64,000 nt of DNA from Methanosarcina mazei S-6. Its GTDB lineage: Archaea; Halobacteriota; Methanosarcinia; Methanosarcinales; Methanosarcinaceae. Location of the stretch: NCBI RefSeq assembly GCF_000970205.1, contig NZ_CP009512.1:496001-560000 (forward strand), read 5' to 3'. A program made the translations under genes and the position numbers. The stretch's first letter is position 1, and every line of letters starts with the position of its first letter. Positions 28,658 to 38,552 of this stretch are shown piece by piece. Under the pieces are notes generated by a model. That model ran no database searches, was not told where the DNA came from, and worked only from the letters and a program-made list of their open reading frames with translations.

Positions 28658-29962
28658 ATGGTAACTATAAACCTTACTCTTAATAACTTTTCGGAGCTCC
28701 CTGCTCTTTTAGACGTTTTTGGTTGTTTTGGAAACGATTACGAATACACTACACAAGGAATTTTTCGTAGAAAAATTCCTCCAGCCTGTTCTATTTGTAG
28801 TACTCCAATGGTTCATAATGGCTATAATCCCCATACCAAACAAGGTCTTGGAGAAATCATCATTGGTCGATATAAATGCTCAAATTGTGGTAGTACACAC
28901 GAAGAAGATCATAGCTTTTGGGAAGATCTGAAAGCTTTACTTTATGATTCATTCAATGATTTCTTCAAGTTACTCAGATACCATAACGTTTCATATGAAG
29001 GAATCTCTGATATAATGGACTTCATCTATCCAAGATCAAGAAGCACTATTTTAAGAGCATTCTACAAAGAAATGGAACAGGAAACTGTTCCATTTTCAGA
29101 AAATATACATATGGTACACTATGACGAACAACATCCAAAAGAAGGACGCTGTCAGAAATACCGTTTAACCTTACTGGACGCAAAAACTCAAACAACAATA
29201 GCAGATGACCTTTTTGATGATAAGAGTCCAGAAACAATCAAGGAATTTCTACGGAAAAATCTTGATGCATCAGAACCTGTGTTTATCGTTACGGATTTTG
29301 ATAAGAGATACCCTGATATATTAAAGGAAATTTTTGGAGATAAGTTAGTGCATCAATATTGTTTGATGCACTTAAACAAGCTTATAGTTAGTGATTTTCC
29401 AAAAAATACAACCATTGAACAGGAACTATTGAAGTACAGGTTATTGAATATATTTTACAATCGAGAGAATGAAATTAAATTTTTGGAAGAACTTCAATCT
29501 GAAGAACTCAACGTAATTAATAATGAAGAAAAACATCAAGAATGGAGTAAAAAAGCAAAAAAGGAATTTAACCAGTTTAGACGTAAATTAAAGCTTGAAA
29601 GAAGACGAAAAAAGGAAAATCTTCCACTTAATAGTCTTGAAAAAGCAAAACATAACTTCGATAAATTAATGGAAAATATAAGAACATACGATCAAACGAT
29701 TCAAAAACGATTATGGATGATCAATAAACACTGGTTAAATCTTACTTTGTTCCATTATCTTCCAGGAGCGCCAGCGACAAATAACCCTATCGAAAGCTAT
29801 TATTCTAAAAGTCTAAAAACTGATAACAAGAAGCAGTTCAGGACTGATAAAGGAATTGGGAACCAGATTAAACTTACTCAAATGAGAAGATTAAATTTGC
29901 TCAAGAAACCACAAAAGTCATTTCTGGAATTGTTCAGATTATTTAATCCATTTAAGCTTTAG
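28658..29962 (+). mobile_element. Insertion sequence transposase, intact (possibly ISNCY/ISM1-like)
   Basis: A 434-residue transposase with no frame break. An N-terminal zinc-finger pair (CSIC...CSNCGS) comes first, then a DDE-type core with VHYDEQHPKEGR, FIVTDFDKRYPDI and HQYCLMHLNKL, a basic coiled segment rich in Lys/Arg/Glu, and TNNPIESYYSK near the end. The layout suits MULE/ISNCY-type archaeal transposases (an ISM1 relationship is a guess). I could not define terminal inverted repeats with certainty, so only the coding span is given. It is AT-richer than its neighbours. The intact frame suggests recent activity. Confidence 0.82.
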
Positions 29963-30548: not shown

Positions 30549-31325
30549 TCAAAAACTGGTTTTCTCTCTTGCTTCTTCAGGGCTCGGTTTTTCAGAGGAT
30601 TTGATTTCCTTAAGTTTTTCAGAGGATTTGATTTCCTTAATATCCAGTGTTTTTACTTCTGCGCCGTCCGGAATCTCGAATTTAAACTCAGAGTCAGGAA
30701 TTCCGGAGTTGACTTTCAGGTCCCGAATTTCGATTTTTGCGGTCAGATTTCCATCGCCATCATACATCTCATACCTCAGAGGCATCCATGTTTCTTTATC
30801 TACCCAGATTTTTGTCCTGTTTATCATCGGATAAGCTCCATCTTTTTCTTTCGAACTTGTCTCCAGCAGGTAAGCAGTCCTTCCATCTATGTTTTCCACT
30901 CTGAGCAGTGTTACATTTGTAGAATTCAGGAATTCACCTATAGCATTGATGCAGTCGCTTTTCGTAGGTTCGGGGATATCGGGAAGCTCCATTTTTATGA
31001 CTTCATTCGTAGCCGGGATGTAACTCCACGCGAATTCCCCATCCGAAACAATAATTATCTGATCCTTTTTCCCGGGTTCCGTTATAATGTCTTTACTCAT
31101 GTTCGGCTTTTTGAACATGGTCTTATATTCGATTTCCGCAGTTTTTCCCCCTGCGTAGGAGGTCATGTACATTGTATACGAATAGTCTTCAGTGCTGTTC
31201 TGTTTGTCCAGCATCTGGGTTACAATCTCTTCTGCACTCAGGTTTTCTTCCGTGCAGCCTGAGGCAAAGAGGATTATAGCTACAAATGCCAGCATGAGTA
31301 TCGATTTGAGTCCTTTCGTTGGCAT
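30549..31325 (-). CDS. LolA-like outer-membrane-lipoprotein-sorting family lipoprotein
   Basis: A 258-residue lipoprotein from ATG 31325, preceded by AGGAGGAG. The signal peptide ends in the lipobox FASGC. The mature part resembles the LolA/DUF4367-type half-barrel family common in Methanosarcina: SAEEIVTQML start, DGEFAWSYIPATNEVIKM, GRTAYLLETS, KIWVDKETWMPLRYEM, and EFKFEIPDGAEV end. The family is thought to bind lipids or hydrophobic ligands outside the cell. The role here is unknown. Near the C-terminus a 27-bp repeat doubles the peptide KEIKSSEKL. The ribosome-binding region itself is duplicated (31326 and 31358). Confidence 0.75.
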   Translation of the reverse strand: MPTKGLKSILMLAFVAIILFASGCTEENLSAEEIVTQMLDKQNSTEDYSYTMYMTSYAGGKTAEIEYKTMFKKPNMSKDIITEPGKKDQIIIVSDGEFAWSYIPATNEVIKMELPDIPEPTKSDCINAIGEFLNSTNVTLLRVENIDGRTAYLLETSSKEKDGAYPMINRTKIWVDKETWMPLRYEMYDGDGNLTAKIEIRDLKVNSGIPDSEFKFEIPDGAEVKTLDIKEIKSSEKLKEIKSSEKPSPEEAREKTSF

Positions 31326-31404
31326 CACGCTACTCCTCCTTCAACGGGTGTTGTTATCACGTTACTCCTCCCTCAATGGGTAATTTTTTAATTCATAAAA
31401 AGAA

Positions 31405-31521: not shown

Positions 31522-31774
31522 CGCCTACTTTCGTAGGGTAATGCGTATCCTGAAGTATAGAATAATTTCAGGAATCCGTCTTCCTCTCGATCAGATATTG
31601 CAAGGTTTTTGATATAAGCGCTGTCCACAACCCTTTAGGACTTTTAACTTGTATCCTTAGAGCTTCAAACTGAGGCGACATTCGAAGGTAACTATATGAT
31701 TCTTGCATATCGTTTACCAATTTTGTTTACTCCAATTGATGATCTGGTCAACAAGGGCTATCTTTAGACAAGCC

Positions 31775-31810
31775 CCTTCCTCGACCGCATCAGCGGGCAG
31801 GGAGGGGTAG
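31775..31810 (+). repeat. Hairpin resembling an IS605-type right end, followed by TTGAC
   Basis: CCCCTTCCT pairs with AGGGAGGGG and GACCGC with GCGGGC around an ATCA loop, each with one mismatch. TAGTTGAC follows directly. This resembles the right-end or omega-RNA hairpin of TnpB-coding elements, but no tnpB is present, so it would be a remnant or a non-autonomous element. Confidence 0.35.
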
Positions 31811-32077
31811 TTGACCGGTAACTGTTAATTTTCAAGAAGATAATATATCCTGAATGTCCCGGTTCTGCCATAGTTTCCGAAATTTTAACTTATTTCTTCA
31901 AGCAAATATAAAGTTGTAGCTATTTTTTATATTATTAGTATATATAGAATTATTTCTTTATCTTTTTAAATCTTTTATTAATTATAGTTAATAAGCTTAT
32001 TTATAAACAAAAATTACTAACAAATAACCCGCTTATCCAGTAGAATATTAACTTCGATAAATGCTTTGGAAAACATA

Positions 32078-32240
32078 TTTAAACTCTATAAACTCCTATA
32101 TACTCTTCTTTGTTAACTCCTTATAAGTTTTCTGTGTAAATTCTCGAACAATTGTTTTTCAGACTCGAAAAGAATCTGAAATTAATCCCTGATTTTTGAT
32201 TGTTTGATGGTTTGGCTAGAAAATATATATGAACAAATTG
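32078..32240 (-). promoter_or_regulatory. Leader module, copy C (orphan)
   Basis: On the minus strand: a TATA-like CATATATATTTTCTAG, CAAACAATCA, a CAGATTC/GAGTCTG hairpin, then CAGAAAACTTATAAGGAGTT and GAGTTTAAATA. The same blocks in the same order occur upstream of two secreted-protein genes (34501-34650, 37400-37580). No gene follows this copy, so its gene has probably been lost. Confidence 0.55.
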
Positions 32241-32673
32241 CCCTAACTCGTATTCAAATACATATATAAAAGAAGATTAGTAAAATTTTACAGTCTTACA
32301 AGTCGATATTTAAATTAATCCATATAAATCCTGGACTGATATATTCTCGAATTACAATATTTAGAGGAATAAGTGCAAGTATGAAGATATTTTATGATGA
32401 ATTATAGGCTCAAGGTTGAGAGATCAATCTATCCTTGCAAATCCCTACAGGCCAGGTTACTAAGATCTTAAAAAGCTTCTAACAAATTCAAAAAACAATA
32501 GCAAGAAAATTTATTGAAATCTATTTATATTTGTAGGTTTCTCCGATCAAATTTTCTAAGCATACTTTTCCCATGAACCAATATACGTGTGCGATATAAT
32601 ACGCGTGTGCGTTGCATATGTATACGTATGGACATTACAACCGACTAAATACAGATACTTAGCGAAATTCTCT

Positions 32674-32883
32674 CTAGTCAATTCCTAACTTAACAAGAAT
32701 CCAGTAGGCAAAAAACCCAAAAAGAAAAAATCCAATCAGTGATATTGTTATTAATGGATAGTCATGTACTCCATTTTTAGATACTGCTTCTCCGAGTTTT
32801 TGTGATATAACTTGAGCAAGTACGGTCATAGCAATAACCGTGAAAACTGGAATTAAAATCCTTAATATCTGTTTTCTTTCCAT
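32674..32883 (-). CDS. Small two-helix membrane protein
   Basis: 69 residues: MERKQ start, hydrophobic helix (about 7-27), polar loop with SKNGVHDYP, second helix (about 45-64) and a short tail. GGTGAT lies just before the ATG. A GGCTGATT/AATCAGCC hairpin is 20 bp upstream. The second small gene at 33483-33665 has the same plan and a similar hairpin upstream. A secreted-protein gene precedes that one, while here an IS1634 relic sits in that position. No family is recognised. Size and setting would suit an immunity or anchoring peptide, which is inference only. Confidence 0.55.
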   Translation of the reverse strand: MERKQILRILIPVFTVIAMTVLAQVISQKLGEAVSKNGVHDYPLITISLIGFFLFGFFAYWILVKLGID

Positions 32884-32902
32884 GTTATCACCAAATAAAA
32901 AA

Positions 32903-32922
32903 GGCTGATTAAAAAATCAGCC
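32903..32922 (-). repeat. GGCTGATT-AAAA-AATCAGCC hairpin
   Basis: Perfect 8-bp stem, 4-base loop, directly upstream of the 69-residue membrane protein. On the minus strand it is followed by TTTTTTATTT, so it could attenuate or terminate read-through from a gene upstream. The stem sequence matches the twin hairpins at 33687-33728. Confidence 0.65.
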
Positions 32923-32953
32923 GATATTCAACTGCCTTTCCGCAGATCTCCAC

Positions 32954-33401
32954 TCAAAAGTAGTATTTTTCACAATTTTTCCCCATCAACCTTATTATCT
33001 TGGCTTTAACTTCATTCATGTTGGCAATTTGAGTTACTACTTTTGAATCAATTTCCAGTTTTACTTCTGTAATCCCTCTCATTAGCATAAAAGCCCACTT
33101 CAAAGTGGGCTTTTGAGTTTGTTTTAACTTGGTCAAGCATTGTTTCCCCTGTTTCATTTAGCCTTTCTCTTAATTTCCATTCCGCTACCGGGTAAACCAT
33201 TAGAGTTAATACCATTACCATTGATAGAGCTTCAATTCTTTGAGGTTTTTTCAAATAAACCTCCGAAACCCTGAAACTTTTGTCCTTTATGAACCTGAAC
33301 CCTTTTTCAACTTTACTTTGATTTTTGTAGTAATCCAGCATCTTTTCAGCATCAAGATTGAGAAAACGTCTTAAATTCAAACCATTAATATGACTGGACA
33401 A
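32954..33401 (-). pseudogene. IS1634-family transposase C-terminal relic
   Basis: Two overlapping minus frames (33048-33401 and 32954-33157) together give the C-terminal quarter of an IS1634 transposase. Visible are DYYKNQSKVEKGFRFIKD, VYLKKPQRIEALSMVM and YPVAEWKLRERL in one frame. After a frameshift near 33100, TLKWAFMLMRGI and a GKNCEKYYF end follow in the other. The N-terminal three quarters, including most of the catalytic core, are missing. It sits where a secreted-protein gene would be expected upstream of the 69-residue membrane protein. Confidence 0.8.
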
Positions 33402-33482
33402 TAATCAGTGTTAACTTTCTAATTCAGTTCGGGTTTTAAATAATTAAACGCACAGGTAGAGTTAAAAAAAGTCTAACAGTAT

Positions 33483-33665
33483 TCAATTAAATTTTCCAGT
33501 TTTTCGATAATAACTAGCCGATTTATATAAATATCCACAAATGAACGCAATCCAAATAGAGAAATAAGTTATATAATCATATTTTGGATAATGTATAGTA
33601 AGTCTAACTACTGCTACTAAAGTAATAACTTGAATTAACAATGTTATCATGTTCTTTTTTTCCAT
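33483..33665 (-). CDS. Small two-helix membrane protein, second copy of the cassette type
   Basis: 60 residues: MEKKN start, hydrophobic helix (about 6-24), short loop HYPKYDY, second helix (about 31-46) and a basic end YYRKTGKFN. An AGAGGG ribosome-binding site lies 6-8 bases upstream. It follows a secreted-protein gene on the same strand by 82 bp, and two GGCTGAT/ATCAGCC hairpins lie in that gap. There is no clear sequence family. The plan matches the 69-residue protein at 32674-32883. Confidence 0.55.
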   Translation of the reverse strand: MEKKNMITLLIQVITLVAVVRLTIHYPKYDYITYFSIWIAFICGYLYKSASYYRKTGKFN

Positions 33666-33686
33666 AATATCCCTCTAAATTAAATT

Positions 33687-33728
33687 TGGCTGATTGTAAT
33701 ATCAGCCAGGCTGATTATAATATCAGCC
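33687..33728 (-). repeat. Twin GGCTGAT/ATCAGCC hairpins
   Basis: TGGCTGAT-N6-ATCAGCCA (33687-33708) and GGCTGAT-N6-ATCAGCC (33709-33728) stand back to back between the secreted-protein gene and the small membrane-protein gene. The stem is the same as at 32903-32922. Confidence 0.75.
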
Positions 33729-33747
33729 AAATGGTTAATTAAATTGG

Positions 33748-34485
33748 TTAAATTGTGTACCAATGTGAACCAATTTTCATACTAACATGGCCTGTTAATG
33801 GATATTGGAGCGCATTTGCATAAGGTATACTAACGTCTATACTATTGTCAGAATTTGATTCTGCCCAATAAAATGTTGCTATTCCAAAAGCCACCAAAGC
33901 GCCTATTGCATCACCAAAAGGCAACGGTCCATCGAGTATTATTCCAAGAAGTACAGCAGCAGTTGCAGCACCACCAGCAAGCCAGAGCCCATCTTTTGCC
34001 GAGAAATGAATATGCACCCCACCTGTTGTTGCAGATCCATATGTTTCAAGATAACTTCCATTCCAAAAACTTACCTTAGCGGCAGAAATTACTGTTGCAA
34101 CTGCCGAACTATCATTTAGACTTGCAGTAGATATGAGTTTTTTGGATACTAATTCACTCTGATCCACAAAAGCAAAATTTGTTCTATTAGGATTCTTTTC
34201 ATCTGCCCATGAAATCACGTATGCAATTGATCCATCATCTTTTTTGAAAGATACTATCTTTTCTTTATCGGTTTCTTTCAATACATTCATGTTTTTTGAT
34301 GTTTCACTCACTTTTTCCATTGCTTTTTTGAGGTCCTCTTCAGAAATTGGGATGTTGTTCGAAATGTCTATCGCATCAACATACTCTTTATTTTGCGATC
34401 CGGCCTGTGCACTCACAGCCGGAACAAAAGCAACACTTACAAGAAGTACTGCCATAAACAATGCACTTATTTTAAGTTTCTTCAT
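33748..34485 (-). CDS. Secreted protein with a long hydrophobic C-terminal segment
   Basis: 245 residues. The signal peptide KLKISALFMAVLLVSVAF ends at PAVSA, about residue 26. A charged region (about 30-115) resembles a propeptide. A glycine/alanine-rich hydrophobic stretch with DGLWLAGGAATAAVLLG and LPFGDAIGALVAFGIATFYW (about 165-207) follows, then a polar tail ending HWYTI. GACAGGAGTGA provides the ribosome-binding site. It is preceded by a long leader (copy A) and followed by the hairpins and a tiny membrane protein. No family is recognised. A pore-forming peptide or bacteriocin precursor with its immunity partner is one possible reading, and an envelope protein is another. Confidence 0.6.
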   Translation of the reverse strand: MKKLKISALFMAVLLVSVAFVPAVSAQAGSQNKEYVDAIDISNNIPISEEDLKKAMEKVSETSKNMNVLKETDKEKIVSFKKDDGSIAYVISWADEKNPNRTNFAFVDQSELVSKKLISTASLNDSSAVATVISAAKVSFWNGSYLETYGSATTGGVHIHFSAKDGLWLAGGAATAAVLLGIILDGPLPFGDAIGALVAFGIATFYWAESNSDNSIDVSIPYANALQYPLTGHVSMKIGSHWYTI

Positions 34486-34500
34486 AATTTCACTCCTGTT

Positions 34501-34650
34501 TAATTACTCTTTGTTCACTCCTTATAAATTTTTCTAGCCAGATCATCAAACTGATGATTTTTCATGCTCCTTTCAAGTCTGCAATTATTCCCTCTCTTTG
34601 ATTGTTAAATACTTTTGACAGAAAATTTATATAACAGTACTTACTGCAAG
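34501..34650 (-). promoter_or_regulatory. Leader module, copy A (upstream of the secreted protein at 33748-34485)
   Basis: On the minus strand: GTTATATAAATTTTCTG (TATA, centred near 34627), AACAATCAAAGAG, an ATCATCA/TGATGAT hairpin, CTGGCTAGAAA, TTTATAAGGAGTGAACAAAG, then the gene start. If transcription begins about 25 bp after the TATA box, the 5' UTR is roughly 115 nt. Confidence 0.55.
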
Positions 34651-35689
34651 TAGTTTTTATTCTAAAAACTAAACAACGATGTTTTTAACGAATATATTAA
34701 TTTTAATTAAAATAATAGATTAAAATATGTCAAAAATTCTAATTTTTAGAATTAATTTCAATACATTTTGGAATGCGATCAATAATTATCGAAGTGGATC
34801 TTGAGGAAAATAATTAAATGGACTTTAAAGTATTTTTGATATCTGAAACTTCCGAAAAGCTATAGAACCAAAATCTCTTAAAGAAAAACAATAGAGACAC
34901 AGAGCTAAAAAAAACCATGATGGAAACTTAGTAAGATAGCTAAATATTTTTTTCAACCTTTAAGAATAACACGAGCACTGTCCTTACTATAAATTTTCCT
35001 ATCACAAGTTAAATTCGAATTCTATATTTCAGCCTTTTGTTTCGCGTTTCGGTGAGGCTAAATCAGGCTCTCCGCTATTTTGTGTAGGTTGAAAATTATT
35101 GCTTAGTTAGAAAGTAGCCAGGCAAAAAAAGAAACATCAAGCTTGAATGTGATTTTCAACAACGAATGTTTCTAAATTTTAGATATGCCACTTCAATATT
35201 TAGGAGATGAATGCAAGTTATCCATTCGAAACACGAAGAGCCCTAAATCATGAATCCTTCACATATGAAGCTCTAACATTAGTTCCACTGGAAACCTAAT
35301 CATAAGAACGTCAACCATTAGTGATGGATGTCCTACAAATGCAGAAAGACGAGGTAGTGAGAGAATTTCATGATAATAATAAAAATAGATGTAGCCGCAG
35401 GTTCGGTTATATTCGGAAAATTCTTACAACTCATTACAGGGCAGTAGATTTCGTTTTGGCCTCTTCGCAACAATTGCCGTTTTTATGGGATTTTCGATCC
35501 AAAAAATATTAGGGTCTTTTCCTTGATTTTCGGAAAAATGGGCTGTATTCGGCCTATCTTTTACGGAATTTTCTTATACATAACTCCCTCAGCGCCTTTG
35601 AAGTCTACCTTTTATTACCCTGATAGTTCACTTTCTTCTGATTTTTGCCTTTTTTCACTGTGCTGAATCTTTTTCCATTCATTCCCGGT
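34651..35689. other. Non-coding AT-rich stretch in the accessory island
   Basis: About 1 kb without a supported gene. The frame 35321-35512 (63 codons) lacks a ribosome-binding site and family features. No long repeats were seen. Confidence 0.45.
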
Positions 35690-35880
35690 TTAGAAAAATT
35701 TGGACAAAAGAGAAGAATTCGAAACGCAGTGTTCTGAAAAGGTGCATTCTTTACAGAATTTTTCTTCCGTTTTCTCAGGCATGAATCCGGCTTTTATTTT
35801 TTCCACACGCCTGCATATTTTCAATACTTCTCTGCGGTCCGAACTCTGGATAACTACTTTTCGGATTATCCCTAACTGCT
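35690..35880 (-). pseudogene. Partial second copy of the Cas4-like gene (3' end only)
   Basis: It encodes the last 57 residues of the protein at 37734-38552 with only a few changes. RKVVIQSSDRREVLKICRR and CKECTFSEHCVSNSS stand against RKVVIRSSDRRE and CPECTFSEHCVSNSS. The DNA match runs on past the stop to about 35670. It begins abruptly at 35880, where an IS630 transposase fragment takes over. Confidence 0.85.
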
Positions 35881-36011
35881 TTTTGATCAAACTCTGGATC
35901 AACTTTAGCAATATAAGAGCTAATCTTATGTGGTTTTATGTTGCTCGCATTGAGAATTTTTGGAATTGCTCCTTTAGGACGATGACTTATACGAGGTGTA
36001 AGGTAGTTCAT
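35881..36011 (-). pseudogene. IS630-family transposase fragment
   Basis: The minus strand reads ISHRPKGAIPKILNAS and NIKPHKISSYIAKVDPEFDQK, typical of the linker between the HTH and DDE parts of IS630 transposases (IKPHKIxYYLxxxDPxF). Both ends are cut. The lower end is fused to the Cas4-like fragment. It is a different subgroup from the IS630 element at 17 kb. Confidence 0.72.
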
Positions 36012-36078
36012 TGAATAATTAATATAATCCCCTTATATATTAGAATCTAAGCACTATACTAGGAATAGTCCCAAATGA

Positions 36079-36165
36079 TCACCTATATGTTAATCCCAGG
36101 AGAATAACAAAAAGTACAATGCATAATAATACAAGCTCTATAATATATTTAACTGATTTACTCAT
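36079..36165 (-). CDS. Possible 28-residue single-helix membrane peptide
   Basis: ATG at 36165, preceded by AAAGGTG. It encodes MSKSVKYIIELVLLCIVLF and a short tail LGLTYR, a clear membrane helix with basic start and end. It lies about 360 bp downstream of the secreted-protein gene 36527-37279 on the same strand, the place where other cassettes have a small membrane protein. Chance cannot be excluded at this length. Confidence 0.35.
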   Translation of the reverse strand: MSKSVKYIIELVLLCIVLFVILLGLTYR

Positions 36166-36526
36166 AATTCGACACCTTTTTACTATCATTTTAGTCCAAA
36201 CATGTGAAGTACATTGACTCATGAATTGTACTTAGAACTTATTTTGTTCTCCTACGGTTAGAAATTTAGTTTCAGCCGCAGATTAATCCCTCTTCCACAA
36301 GAATGACTATAAATAAAAAAATTAAAGTGTAGATATTTTTGGCTGAAATACTATTTGTGGGTCTAAAAAATTGCAAAAATCAAATTTTACATACAACAAT
36401 TTTAGTATTTTGCTTTTGAAAGCATTATGAGGTTTTATGAAAGAATTGTAGAGTTAACCTTGCCTTTCTATAGTAACGCAACCAAATTTCTACCTTTGAT
36501 AAATTATTTTTTCACAATCATTATAG
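36166..36526. other. Spacer downstream of the 36.5-kb secreted-protein gene
   Basis: About 360 bp, AT-rich, with T runs after the secreted-protein stop on the minus strand. No gene or repeat is recognised. Confidence 0.4.
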
Positions 36527-37279
36527 TTAAGGAGCAGTTTCTTCAAAAATAACCCGATAATTACCGTTTTGATCACATTTTATGTAAAGGTTGTCATAAA
36601 ACTCACGTATAACTATACCAGTACCTTCAATAAATATTCCCCACTGGAAAGTTCCTCTACCGTAGATGTCTGAGCGAGTACCTGAACTATATTCGATACT
36701 TCCTTCTTCCCAGTTACTAACTGACCAATATAATGCATAATTTCTTACGTACCATGAATCTATATAATGAGCATCTACAGTCTGACCATTATAAGTAAAA
36801 TACCCCTTTGTATAAATTGTGTAGACTTTAACACCAGTCCAAGAATAGAGTTCCTTATATCCTTTAATGGTGGGAGTAGTCGAAACACTCGCTATAGTAG
36901 CAGTTTGAGTTGTTATTTCATTATTTGTTTCTTCCTCTACGCCAGTAATGAAGAAATAGCTTCCATTTGTGAAGGTTATATTTGATCCATCTCTTAGTTG
37001 ATAAGTCCTTAAATTAATTTTATCTGAAGCAGTATCATTTTCTTTAAGATCATTTATTGAAATTTTATCTTTGTTTGCTTTAACATAATTCGCAACCACA
37101 TCTTCTGTGGATAAGTTTTTTTTATTGGAATTCAGTGAATCTATTAGCCCTTGTTCCAATTCAGAAGGCTTCTTACTGATCTTTGAGATTTCTTGTGCAC
37201 TCACAGCTGGTATCAATGTCATACCAACCAGTAGTATTACCAAAATTAATATTCCTATTCCAAACCTTTTATTGAACAT
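36527..37279 (-). CDS. Secreted protein of unknown function with beta-rich C-terminal half
   Basis: 250 residues with a signal peptide (FGIGILILVILLVGMTLIPAVSA, cleavage near 28). A charged helical region (about 30-85) is followed by a Tyr/Trp/Thr-rich half (YKELYSWTGVKVYTIYTKGYFTYNG, NYALYWSVSNWEEG, GRGTFQWGIF), which suggests a beta sandwich. The C-terminus has no anchor. The PAVSA-Q/A signal end and charged propeptide-like part resemble the secreted protein at 33748-34485, while the C-terminal half differs. It is preceded by leader copy B. No family is recognised. Confidence 0.6.
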   Translation of the reverse strand: MFNKRFGIGILILVILLVGMTLIPAVSAQEISKISKKPSELEQGLIDSLNSNKKNLSTEDVVANYVKANKDKISINDLKENDTASDKINLRTYQLRDGSNITFTNGSYFFITGVEEETNNEITTQTATIASVSTTPTIKGYKELYSWTGVKVYTIYTKGYFTYNGQTVDAHYIDSWYVRNYALYWSVSNWEEGSIEYSSGTRSDIYGRGTFQWGIFIEGTGIVIREFYDNLYIKCDQNGNYRVIFEETAP

Positions 37280-37375
37280 TATATTACATTCCTAGTTATT
37301 TTTTCCCTAGGAGGCAGAATAAGACAAGCTTAAATATACGCTAAGCTAACTTAATTATGCCTCGTAGGGTATGTT

Positions 37376-37420
37376 TTATGGAGTTCGACTGAACCTGGAA
37401 AGTTTATTTGAACTCCATAA
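37376..37420. repeat. Inverted repeat TTATGGAGTTC...GAACTCCATAA in leader B
   Basis: Perfect 11-bp arms with a 23-base loop in the 5' UTR of the secreted-protein gene at 36527-37279. One arm contains ATGGAGTTCAAATAA on the minus strand, a possible four-codon leader peptide preceded by GAGGG. Confidence 0.6.
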
Positions 37421-37580
37421 ATCCCTCTTACCTAACTCCTTATATGTTTTCTGTCCAGATTATCAAACAATCAGAAATGATGTTGGATTTATGATTATTT
37501 TTTTCAAAATTACTACTTTATTGACTAATTGTTTGAGACTCTGGAGAAAAAACTTATATATTCATACTCAACGCAAGTTC
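37400..37580 (-). promoter_or_regulatory. Leader module, copy B (upstream of the secreted protein at 36527-37279)
   Basis: On the minus strand: AATATATAAGTTTTTTCTCC (TATA), a long stem formed by CCAGAGTCTCAAACAATTAG with CTGATTGTTTGATAATCTGG, then CAGAAAACATATAAGGAGTT and GAGTTCAAATAAA. Block order and sequence match copies A and C. The predicted 5' UTR is about 250 nt. Confidence 0.6.
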
Positions 37581-37733
37581 TTTCTTACACCTAAAAAATG
37601 AGAAATGTTATTGTTAATAAAGATACAAACTGTGTTCAGTCGCACTCAAAAAAGTCCTTACAACTGTTACTGAACAACAGTTTTGTTTTTGCTTTTTTTA
37701 TTATGCTGCAATCCTTTTCCATCCATTCATGAT

Positions 37734-38552
37734 TTAGAAAAACTTGGACATGAGGGAAGAATTCGAAACACAGTGCTCTGAAAAGGTGCATTCCGGACAG
37801 AATTTTTCTTCTGTTTTTTCGGGCATCAATCCGGCTTTTATTTTTTCCACACGCCTGCATATTTTCAATACTTCCCTGCGGTCCGAACTCCGGATAACTA
37901 CTTTTCGGATTATCCCGAAACTTACGTATTCGACAAAACCGAAAGGAATTTCTTTTCCGGTCTCGCTTTCAAGGAGAAGGGCAAGTGCTGCAATGTGTAT
38001 TCTGTCAGATGCCCATACGCCCTGAATGGGGCAGCTTCCGGGCCTTATTATTGAGGGGACATTTGCGCCTTCAAAACAGACTATCTTGGAAGGTGATCCC
38101 TTCAGGTTCAGGCGCTTTGAGAAAATAATGGGCTCCGTTTTTACAGGGGTAAGTGCCGCAAGCATGGCATCATTTCCGAATTCTTCTATCCCTTTGAGAA
38201 GGTTGGCTGCAATTTCAGGGATTTTAGCTCTTGCCCGCGCGTCCCCTTCTTCCAGAAATCCTTTTTCTGTGCGTTCAAATTCTTTTGGAAACATTAACGG
38301 GAGGTCTTTACATGCATAAGTGAGAGCAGCTTCGAGTTCTTTGCACATGGTATCGGCGTTTAACGAACACTTTTTCACAATTTCCGAATAATTCAGGGAG
38401 AGTTCCTTCAGAAGCATTCTCTCAAGACGGGAAGCATTAATTTCCGGGAGCAGTTCATATCCCCGGCTGACAAAGTAAACCCTTCGCGGGCAATTGATAT
38501 ACAGGAGCAGGTCTGAGACGCTGATCTCCGGGTTCTGTGAATCTGTGGGCAT
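37734..38552 (-). CDS. Stand-alone Cas4-like / RecB-family nuclease-related protein
   Basis: A 272-residue protein of the Cas4-related (DUF83) group. The N-terminal Cys is in YINCPRRVYF. The C-terminal cluster C-x2-C-x5-C is CPECTFSEHC, with a preceding Cys in KICRRVE. Together these are the four ligands of a Cas4-type Fe-S cluster. The helix DRIHIAALALLLE and KIKAGLMPEK fit the family. The place where a catalytic Asp is usual (GxPDKIV) reads GSPSKIV, so nuclease activity is doubtful. No other cas gene or CRISPR array is in the window. ATG 38552 follows a possible GTG at 38555. A duplicate of its 3' end lies 2 kb away. Confidence 0.72.
   Translation of the reverse strand: MPTDSQNPEISVSDLLLYINCPRRVYFVSRGYELLPEINASRLERMLLKELSLNYSEIVKKCSLNADTMCKELEAALTYACKDLPLMFPKEFERTEKGFLEEGDARARAKIPEIAANLLKGIEEFGNDAMLAALTPVKTEPIIFSKRLNLKGSPSKIVCFEGANVPSIIRPGSCPIQGVWASDRIHIAALALLLESETGKEIPFGFVEYVSFGIIRKVVIRSSDRREVLKICRRVEKIKAGLMPEKTEEKFCPECTFSEHCVSNSSLMSKFF

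What the first reader, a model, noticed from the sequence alone, without database searches (positions are those of the whole stretch)
32078..37580. Repeated cassette: leader, secreted protein, hairpin, tiny membrane protein
Reading the minus strand: leader B then secreted protein (36527-37279) then a possible 28-residue membrane peptide. Leader A then secreted protein (33748-34485) then twin GGCTGAT hairpins then a 60-residue two-helix protein. An IS1634 relic then the same hairpin then a 69-residue two-helix protein. Finally orphan leader C. The order suggests at least three related units eroded by insertion sequences. One secreted protein has a Gly/Ala-rich 40-residue hydrophobic segment after a charged propeptide-like part. 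Inference: archaeocin or surface-toxin genes with small membrane immunity partners. I recognise no known family.
Basis: partly seen in the sequence, partly recalled or inferred. Interest (0 to 1): 0.72.

Follow-up and report, generated by a model that had tools for sequence, protein, structure and literature searches.

The report
Archaeal toxin cassettes with switch-like leader RNA
In this methane-making archaeon, repeated gene pairs look like secreted toxins with small membrane protectors, and one of them, like about two dozen other genes mostly for exported proteins, starts with an undescribed folded RNA that can hide or expose the ribosome-binding site.

Summary
Both secreted proteins belong to families with a signal peptide, a conserved pro-part and a variable C-terminal domain, followed downstream by a small membrane protein. 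In S1-type cassettes a conserved hairpin lies between the two genes. Every intact S1 homologue I examined has the partner, whereas intact partners often remain where the secreted gene is broken or lost; the window's 69-residue protein is such an orphan. Partner type tracks the C-terminal domain, and in one tandem pair C-domain and partner changed together on a near-identical pro-part. This is the pattern of modular toxin-immunity pairs. No Pfam, NCBIfam or PDB family matched; the second protein's C-domain also occurs in Bacillus plasmids and SPbeta-like phages.

Leader B is a structured 5' RNA, absent from Rfam 15. This genome has 26 sense copies, at least 22 in front of signal-peptide ORFs (toxin-like genes, peptidases). 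Covariation supports two mutually exclusive helices sharing one strand: one leaves the ribosome-binding site free, the other pairs with it. A translational switch controlling secreted weapons and exoenzymes is my best reading. Leaders A and C are only promoters with leader remnants. Toxicity, immunity and switching are inferred, not shown.

The parts
37283..37424 (-). Leader B: complete copy of the structured leader RNA (hairpin 1, then the long P2/P3 stem, RBS-pairing strand near the 3' end)
   Evidence: CM R1 match 109.9 bits, E 1.6e-25; covariation; no Rfam match
37434..37559 (-). Promoter region of leader B: TATA-like CATATAAGG and two facing copies of a TTGTTTGA-containing element
   Evidence: repeats D2, I2; sequence
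36527..37279 (-). S2: secreted protein, signal peptide + pro-part + C-domain (about 145-250) shared with Bacillus/SPbeta-like phage proteins
36079..36162 (-). 28-residue single-TM partner of S2
   Evidence: counterparts of 24-30 aa behind L035, L036, L040, L042
34490..34551 (-). Leader A: promoter (TTTGATGATCTGGCTAGAAAAATTTATAAGG) placed about 40 nt before the S1 ATG; structured leader lost
   Evidence: comparison with L004
33748..34485 (-). S1: secreted protein, signal peptide 1-26, pro-part 27 to about 138, C-domain 139-245 with Gly/Ala-rich hydrophobic core 166-208
33688..33732 (.). Twin intercistronic hairpins between S1 and its partner
33483..33665 (-). 60-aa two-TM partner of S1 (class II)
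   Evidence: same type behind L004/L005; related in L011, L012
32954..33401 (-). Transposase relic (DDE_Tnp_1) in the place where the secreted gene of the third cassette would be
   Evidence: PF01609, E 6e-5
32903..32923 (.). Intercistronic hairpin of the broken third cassette
   Evidence: matches L002 and L009 hairpins and spacing
32674..32883 (-). 69-aa two-TM orphan partner (class I)
   Evidence: 84% identical to the L009 partner, dN/dS 0.32, 113.6 bits
32075..32230 (-). Leader C: orphan promoter plus the first bases of hairpin 1
   Evidence: repeats D2-D4

Best explanation
The cassettes encode secreted proteinaceous toxins (archaeocin-like) with small membrane immunity proteins. The precursor is exported by its signal peptide, its pro-part keeps it inactive, and the released C-terminal domain acts on the envelope of sensitive relatives; for S1 this domain is a Gly/Ala-rich hydrophobic segment flanked by conserved motifs, consistent with membrane insertion. 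The partner sits in the producer's membrane and blocks the cognate C-domain. C-domain plus partner form the exchangeable unit. The intercistronic hairpin probably sets the expression ratio of the two genes. Production is controlled by a structured leader RNA: when GAGGCA pairs with TGCCTC the ribosome-binding site is free; when TGCCTC pairs with the ribosome-binding site, translation is off. Shown by sequence: gene pairing, orphan partners, joint change, RNA structure, the two competing helices and association with exported proteins. Inferred: toxicity, immunity, membrane target, switching and its signal.
For: Pairing: all intact S1 homologues examined have a small TM partner, usually 12-90 nt downstream; 15 of 18 scorable S2 homologues have one further downstream; background 3/55. 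Asymmetric loss: partner intact with toxin broken or absent in the window, L010, L015, L186, L204, L189, L191, and several unlike small membrane ORFs side by side in L188, L190, L203; I saw no intact S1 without a partner. Orphan 69-aa dN/dS 0.32. Partner distances track the C-domain beyond the pro-part (partial Mantel 0.53-0.66, p=0.0002, 13 pairs). Tandem L008 cassettes: 3/114 aa differ in the pro-part, 31/109 in the C-domain, partner dN/dS 1.27. Several further precursor classes share the layout. S2 C-domain in Bacillus plasmids and SPbeta-like phages, in two records with a 65-66 aa TM protein behind it. Leader RNA: 88.4% of cells paired, 14 pairs with double changes, 0/500 shuffles; structure recovered de novo from 55 non-seed copies, -41.3 against -3.6 shuffled, 17/29 pairs with double changes; RBS helix 14.26 matched against 12.10 (sd 0.23) mismatched, competing helix 16.59 against 15.79 (sd 0.23); 84 of 86 leaders with a following ORF precede a signal-like N-terminus.
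Against: No toxin domain was recognised and no activity is known. The AlphaFold models are weak (mean pLDDT 49.7 and 37.5) and Foldseek gave nothing. The leader also precedes peptidases, so it is not toxin-specific. S2 partners lie 120-365 nt away in many loci and three S2 homologues lack one. The 13 pairs of the Mantel test are related by descent, so its p-value is optimistic. Both S1-type genes of this genome have lost the complete leader, and archaea do not always need a Shine-Dalgarno. The signal-peptide count used a simple hydrophobicity rule.
Confidence: 0.7

Rival explanations
1. The secreted proteins are envelope or matrix proteins (or exoenzymes) and the small membrane proteins are dedicated anchors or export helpers, not immunity proteins.
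For: The leader RNA also precedes ordinary secreted hydrolases; no toxin family is matched.
Against: Helpers should not persist alone, yet orphan partners and partner arrays occur without the secreted gene; the hydrolases of the same regulon mostly lack such partners; partner type follows the variable C-domain.
Confidence: 0.15
2. The system works within a population (cannibalism or kin discrimination, like SdpC/SdpI of Bacillus subtilis): siblings that have not switched on the leader-controlled genes are lysed and fed on by those that have.
For: Same precursor layout (signal, pro-part, hydrophobic segment, tail) and co-regulation with secreted peptidases and a phospholipase-like protein, which would suit nutrient release.
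Against: No SdpA/SdpB-type maturation genes seen beside the cassettes; no model match to known families; patchy distribution fits competition between strains equally well.
Confidence: 0.25
3. The leader RNA is not a ligand switch but a passive element: a stable 5' structure that sets translation rate or mRNA half-life of exported-protein mRNAs, or a landing site for an sRNA or protein.
For: No ligand is known; the same leader serves unlike genes behind at least three promoter types.
Against: Two competing helices are both kept by covariation, which a passive structure does not need.
Confidence: 0.4
4. The repeated leaders are dispersed mobile DNA (promoter-carrying repeats) that landed in front of genes.
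For: 26 sense copies in one genome; the region holds IS relics.
Against: Copies diverge with compensatory base changes, end at the start codon, are oriented with the gene, and reach other families of the phylum.
Confidence: 0.03

Closest known systems
Polymorphic toxin and bacteriocin-immunity modules (Zhang et al. 2012, PMC3482391; archaeal survey by Makarova et al. 2019, mBio 10:e00715-19, not held here)
   Same: Conserved N-part, variable C-terminal domain, cognate immunity gene directly downstream, orphan immunity genes and arrays, joint exchange of C-domain and immunity gene
   Different: Small Sec-type precursors of about 250 aa, no nuclease or other known toxin domain, immunity proteins of 24-75 aa with one to three TM segments, structured leader RNA in front. 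Whether the 2019 survey already listed these families could not be checked.
Halocin C8 and relatives
   Same: Archaeal precursor with signal peptide, long pro-part and C-terminal peptide (from memory)
   Different: S1 C-domain has no cysteine-rich peptide; NCBIfam halocin model only 0.019-0.34 with one member, far below its cut-off; protection here is a separate gene
SdpC/SdpI of Bacillus subtilis
   Same: Precursor with internal hydrophobic segment released by cleavage; membrane immunity protein (from memory)
   Different: No sequence match in NCBIfam or Pfam; no maturation genes next to the cassettes
Uncharacterised secreted proteins of Bacillus plasmids and SPbeta-like phages (e.g. spr_52 of phage SPR)
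   Same: S2 C-domain 49-54% identical in the best records, signal peptide, in two records followed by a 65-66 aa TM protein
   Different: Different pro-part; function unknown there too; SPR and SH1 copies have no obvious small partner behind them
Translational riboswitches that sequester the ribosome-binding site
   Same: Alternative pairing of one strand either upstream or with the RBS
   Different: No Rfam family matched; ligand unknown; mostly precedes exported-protein genes in Methanosarcinaceae and, more weakly, other families of the phylum

Membership tests
Modular toxin-immunity pair (polymorphic toxin / bacteriocin type) | Secreted precursor with conserved N-part and variable C-terminal domain | tested here: met
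Modular toxin-immunity pair (polymorphic toxin / bacteriocin type) | Cognate partner gene directly downstream in (nearly) all members | tested here: met
   S2: 15 of 18 scorable loci
Modular toxin-immunity pair (polymorphic toxin / bacteriocin type) | Partner specific to the C-domain; orphan immunity genes | tested here: met
   (sequence evidence only)
Modular toxin-immunity pair (polymorphic toxin / bacteriocin type) | C-domain is toxic and the partner protects | not testable with these tools
   needs expression and killing assays
Halocin C8 family | Match to the halocin C8 precursor model | tested here: not met
   best 0.019 for one member, 10.4 bits where scored singly against a cut-off of 200
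SdpC family | Sequence match to a curated model of the family | tested here: not met
   no such model among NCBIfam/Pfam matches
SdpC family | Maturation proteins SdpA/SdpB encoded alongside | tested here: inconclusive
   none noticed in about 1.5 kb around each cassette; not searched genome-wide
Any described RNA family (Rfam 15) | Match to a covariance model | tested here: not met
   window at gathering threshold: only HEARO elsewhere; 11 leader loci, none at E 0.1
Riboswitch | Conserved covarying structure in a 5' UTR | tested here: met
   that the element is the transcribed 5' UTR is inferred from TATA-like sites upstream
Riboswitch | Expression platform: two exclusive helices, one covering the RBS | tested here: met
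   (pairing covaries; switching itself not shown)
Riboswitch | Direct ligand binding | not testable with these tools
   needs in-line probing or SHAPE with candidate metabolites

The most novel reading that the evidence does not exclude
A new, widespread class of structured leader RNA in Methanosarcinaceae, with weaker matches in other families of the phylum, acts as a translational switch (possibly a riboswitch) for the set of exported weapons and digestive enzymes, coupling archaeocin-like toxin cassettes to secreted peptidases.
Probability: 0.6. Interest if true: 0.85.

Novelty: new variant of a known kind. Interest (0 to 1): 0.75.

Why it matters
Few natural regulatory switch RNAs are described in archaea, and killing between methanogens is barely documented. 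A leader with about two dozen copies in one genome gives a ready handle on which signal turns on exported enzymes and toxins, and its copy positions list candidate weapons without any protein homology. The S2 domain shared with Bacillus plasmids and SPbeta-like phages would let its activity be tested in an easy bacterial host.

Tried and rejected
Pfam, NCBIfam and PDB profiles for S1, S2 and the small proteins: only sub-threshold, mutually inconsistent hits. AlphaFold of S1 (2-row alignment) and S2 (single sequence): too weak to interpret; Foldseek against PDB best E 0.11. S1 in plasmids, phages and viral contigs: none. RNAalifold on the first, badly aligned 26-row alignment gave no structure; solved by leaving out the most distant rows. 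Antisense hits of the RNA model come from the near-palindromic hairpin 1 and were not counted. A single TATA-box position was not found: at least three promoter types precede the leader. Homology of archaeal and Listeria small partners: suggestive only (hhalign probability 50%). Papers: no description of this leader was found in the searches made; the 2019 mBio survey of archaeal toxins is not held.
Full report
Setting. On the minus strand the order is: leader B, S2 (36527-37279), a 28-residue peptide, a duplicated tail of the neighbouring Cas4-like gene, leader A, S1 (33748-34485), twin hairpins, a 60-aa protein, a DDE transposase relic, a hairpin, a 69-aa protein, leader C.

S1 family. S1 has a paralogue in the same genome (62% identity), a MAG homologue at 80% and homologues in a patchy subset of Methanosarcinaceae, with one distant relative elsewhere in the phylum (L073). 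Every intact homologue examined is followed on the same strand by a small membrane protein: usually 56-72 aa with two TM segments, a longer multi-TM protein in L016 and L017, and 80 aa in L073. Most intergenic gaps hold a hairpin whose stem sequence varies while pairing is kept (GGCTGAT/ATCAGCC, GACTGAT/ATCAGTC, TTTGATTG/CAATCAAA). In the window background, 3 of 55 ORFs of 150 aa or more have a comparable downstream ORF.

Third cassette is a relic. The 69-aa gene has the same hairpin, spacing and start context as the L002 and L009 partners; similarity to those cassettes begins just behind the place of the missing stop codon, and a transposase fragment occupies the place of the secreted gene. 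Compared with its L009 counterpart the orphan shows dN/dS 0.32.

Immunity signature. Losses are asymmetric. In L010 and L015 the secreted gene is broken and the partner open. L186 and L204 keep a partner behind short remnants of a secreted gene; L189 and L191 keep it without one; L188, L190 and L203 hold several unlike small membrane ORFs side by side. I saw no intact S1 without a partner. Distances between partners follow distances between C-domains beyond what the pro-part explains (partial Mantel 0.53-0.66, p=0.0002); relatedness makes this p-value optimistic. In L008 two tandem cassettes have almost identical pro-parts (3 of 114 residues differ) but unlike C-domains (31 of 109) and partners, as expected if C-domain and partner change or move as a unit.

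S2 family. S2 homologues occur in several genera. Of 18 scorable loci, 15 have a small membrane ORF downstream: 24-30 residues with one TM segment (window, L035, L036, L040, L042) or 60-75 residues with about three; L038, L050 and L051 have none and L043 is decayed (L095). The C-domain has 49-54% identical relatives in Bacillus plasmids and SPbeta-like phages and weaker ones elsewhere in Bacilli; in NZ_CP011023 and NZ_LR134401 a 65-66 aa TM protein follows. No Pfam or NCBIfam model fits these bacterial proteins either.

More precursor classes. Loci brought in by the signal region alone show further classes with the same layout, for example L075, L076, L096 and L092 (hydrophobic C-part ending in a Tyr-rich tail, 2-TM partner), L074 and L094.

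Leader RNA. Upstream of S1 and S2 genes in many genera lies a conserved element of about 140 nt: hairpin 1 (GGAGTTCA/TGAACTCC), then GCCC-GAGGCA pairing with TGCCTC-GGG around an inner stem. On 18 sequences 88.4% of cells pair, 14 pairs show double changes, and no shuffle of 500 reaches this; sliding the partners by one to three columns drops pairing to 29-48%. From 55 leaders not used in the seed the same structure is recovered de novo, -41.3 against -3.6 for column-shuffled alignments, 17 of 29 pairs with double changes. These 55 were found with the model, so they are independent of the seed sequences but not of the search.

Copies and genes. This genome has 26 sense copies; by inspection at least 22 stand before an ORF with a signal-like N-terminus, including C39-like peptidases, a matrixin, reprolysin-like metallopeptidases, serine-protease-like and phospholipase-like proteins (the last two below curated cut-offs), and S2-type genes. 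Across 90 leaders, 86 have an ORF at the 3' end and 84 of these a hydrophobic N-terminus (a simple hydrophobicity rule). Copies occur in 27 of 31 genus members and in 51 of 295 genomes of the phylum, strongest in Methanosarcinaceae. Rfam 15 has no match.

Switch. TGCCTC(C) can also pair with the ribosome-binding region just before the ATG. Stem scores of a leader with its own RBS region are 14.26 on average, with other leaders' RBS regions 12.10 (sd 0.23, highest of 200 permutations 12.72). The competing upstream helix scores 16.59 against 15.79 (sd 0.23, highest 16.49). Both helices covary and share one strand, so they exclude each other. This supports, but does not prove, a translational switch; ligand, protein or sRNA control are all open.

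Window leaders. Leader B is complete. S1 has a promoter about 40 nt before its ATG and no structured leader, and the L002 paralogue keeps only the 3' end of one. If the leader represses, these two genes are expected to escape that control (inference).

What is shown and what is not. Shown by sequence: gene pairing, orphan partners, joint change, RNA structure, competing helices, gene association. Not shown: toxicity, immunity, processing, switching, signal. Structure prediction did not help. Novelty of the protein families is uncertain, because a 2019 survey of archaeal toxins could not be read; for the RNA, no family in Rfam 15 and no paper found in the searches made.

Noticed in passing
window 31578-31815, minus: HEARO RNA (RF02033, 91.3 bits), apparently without its nuclease gene nearby, just beyond leader C.
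   Followed up: no
window 35666-35875 and 37710-37919: A 210-nt, 90% direct repeat of the 3' end of a Cas4-like gene brackets the S2 unit; in L207 a partner-like gene also follows the same Cas4-like gene, so this may be an insertion hotspot.
   Followed up: partly
L188, L190, L203: Small membrane ORFs of several types side by side without a recognisable secreted precursor, like immunity gene arrays.
   Followed up: partly
L075, L076, L096, L092: A third precursor class with hydrophobic C-part and Tyr-rich tail plus 61-81 aa membrane partner.
   Followed up: partly
L146 727-1500, minus: Leader-preceded precursor with a cysteine-rich hydrophobic C-terminus, reminiscent of halocin-type peptides; no family match.
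   Followed up: partly
L004 4927-5685 minus; L075 251-1075 minus: Membrane-bound winged-helix regulators and FilR1-like regulators lie next to several cassettes and may control them.
   Followed up: partly
window 28658-29962, plus: Transposase-like ORF with weak MULE and DUF6431 similarity.
   Followed up: no
window 30549-31328 minus; L002 2300-3478 minus: LolA-like lipoprotein genes lie near both S1-type loci of this genome.
   Followed up: no
L179 (NZ_LR134401.1): Record labelled plasmid carries tyrS, rpsD and other housekeeping genes, so it is probably a chromosome piece.
   Followed up: no
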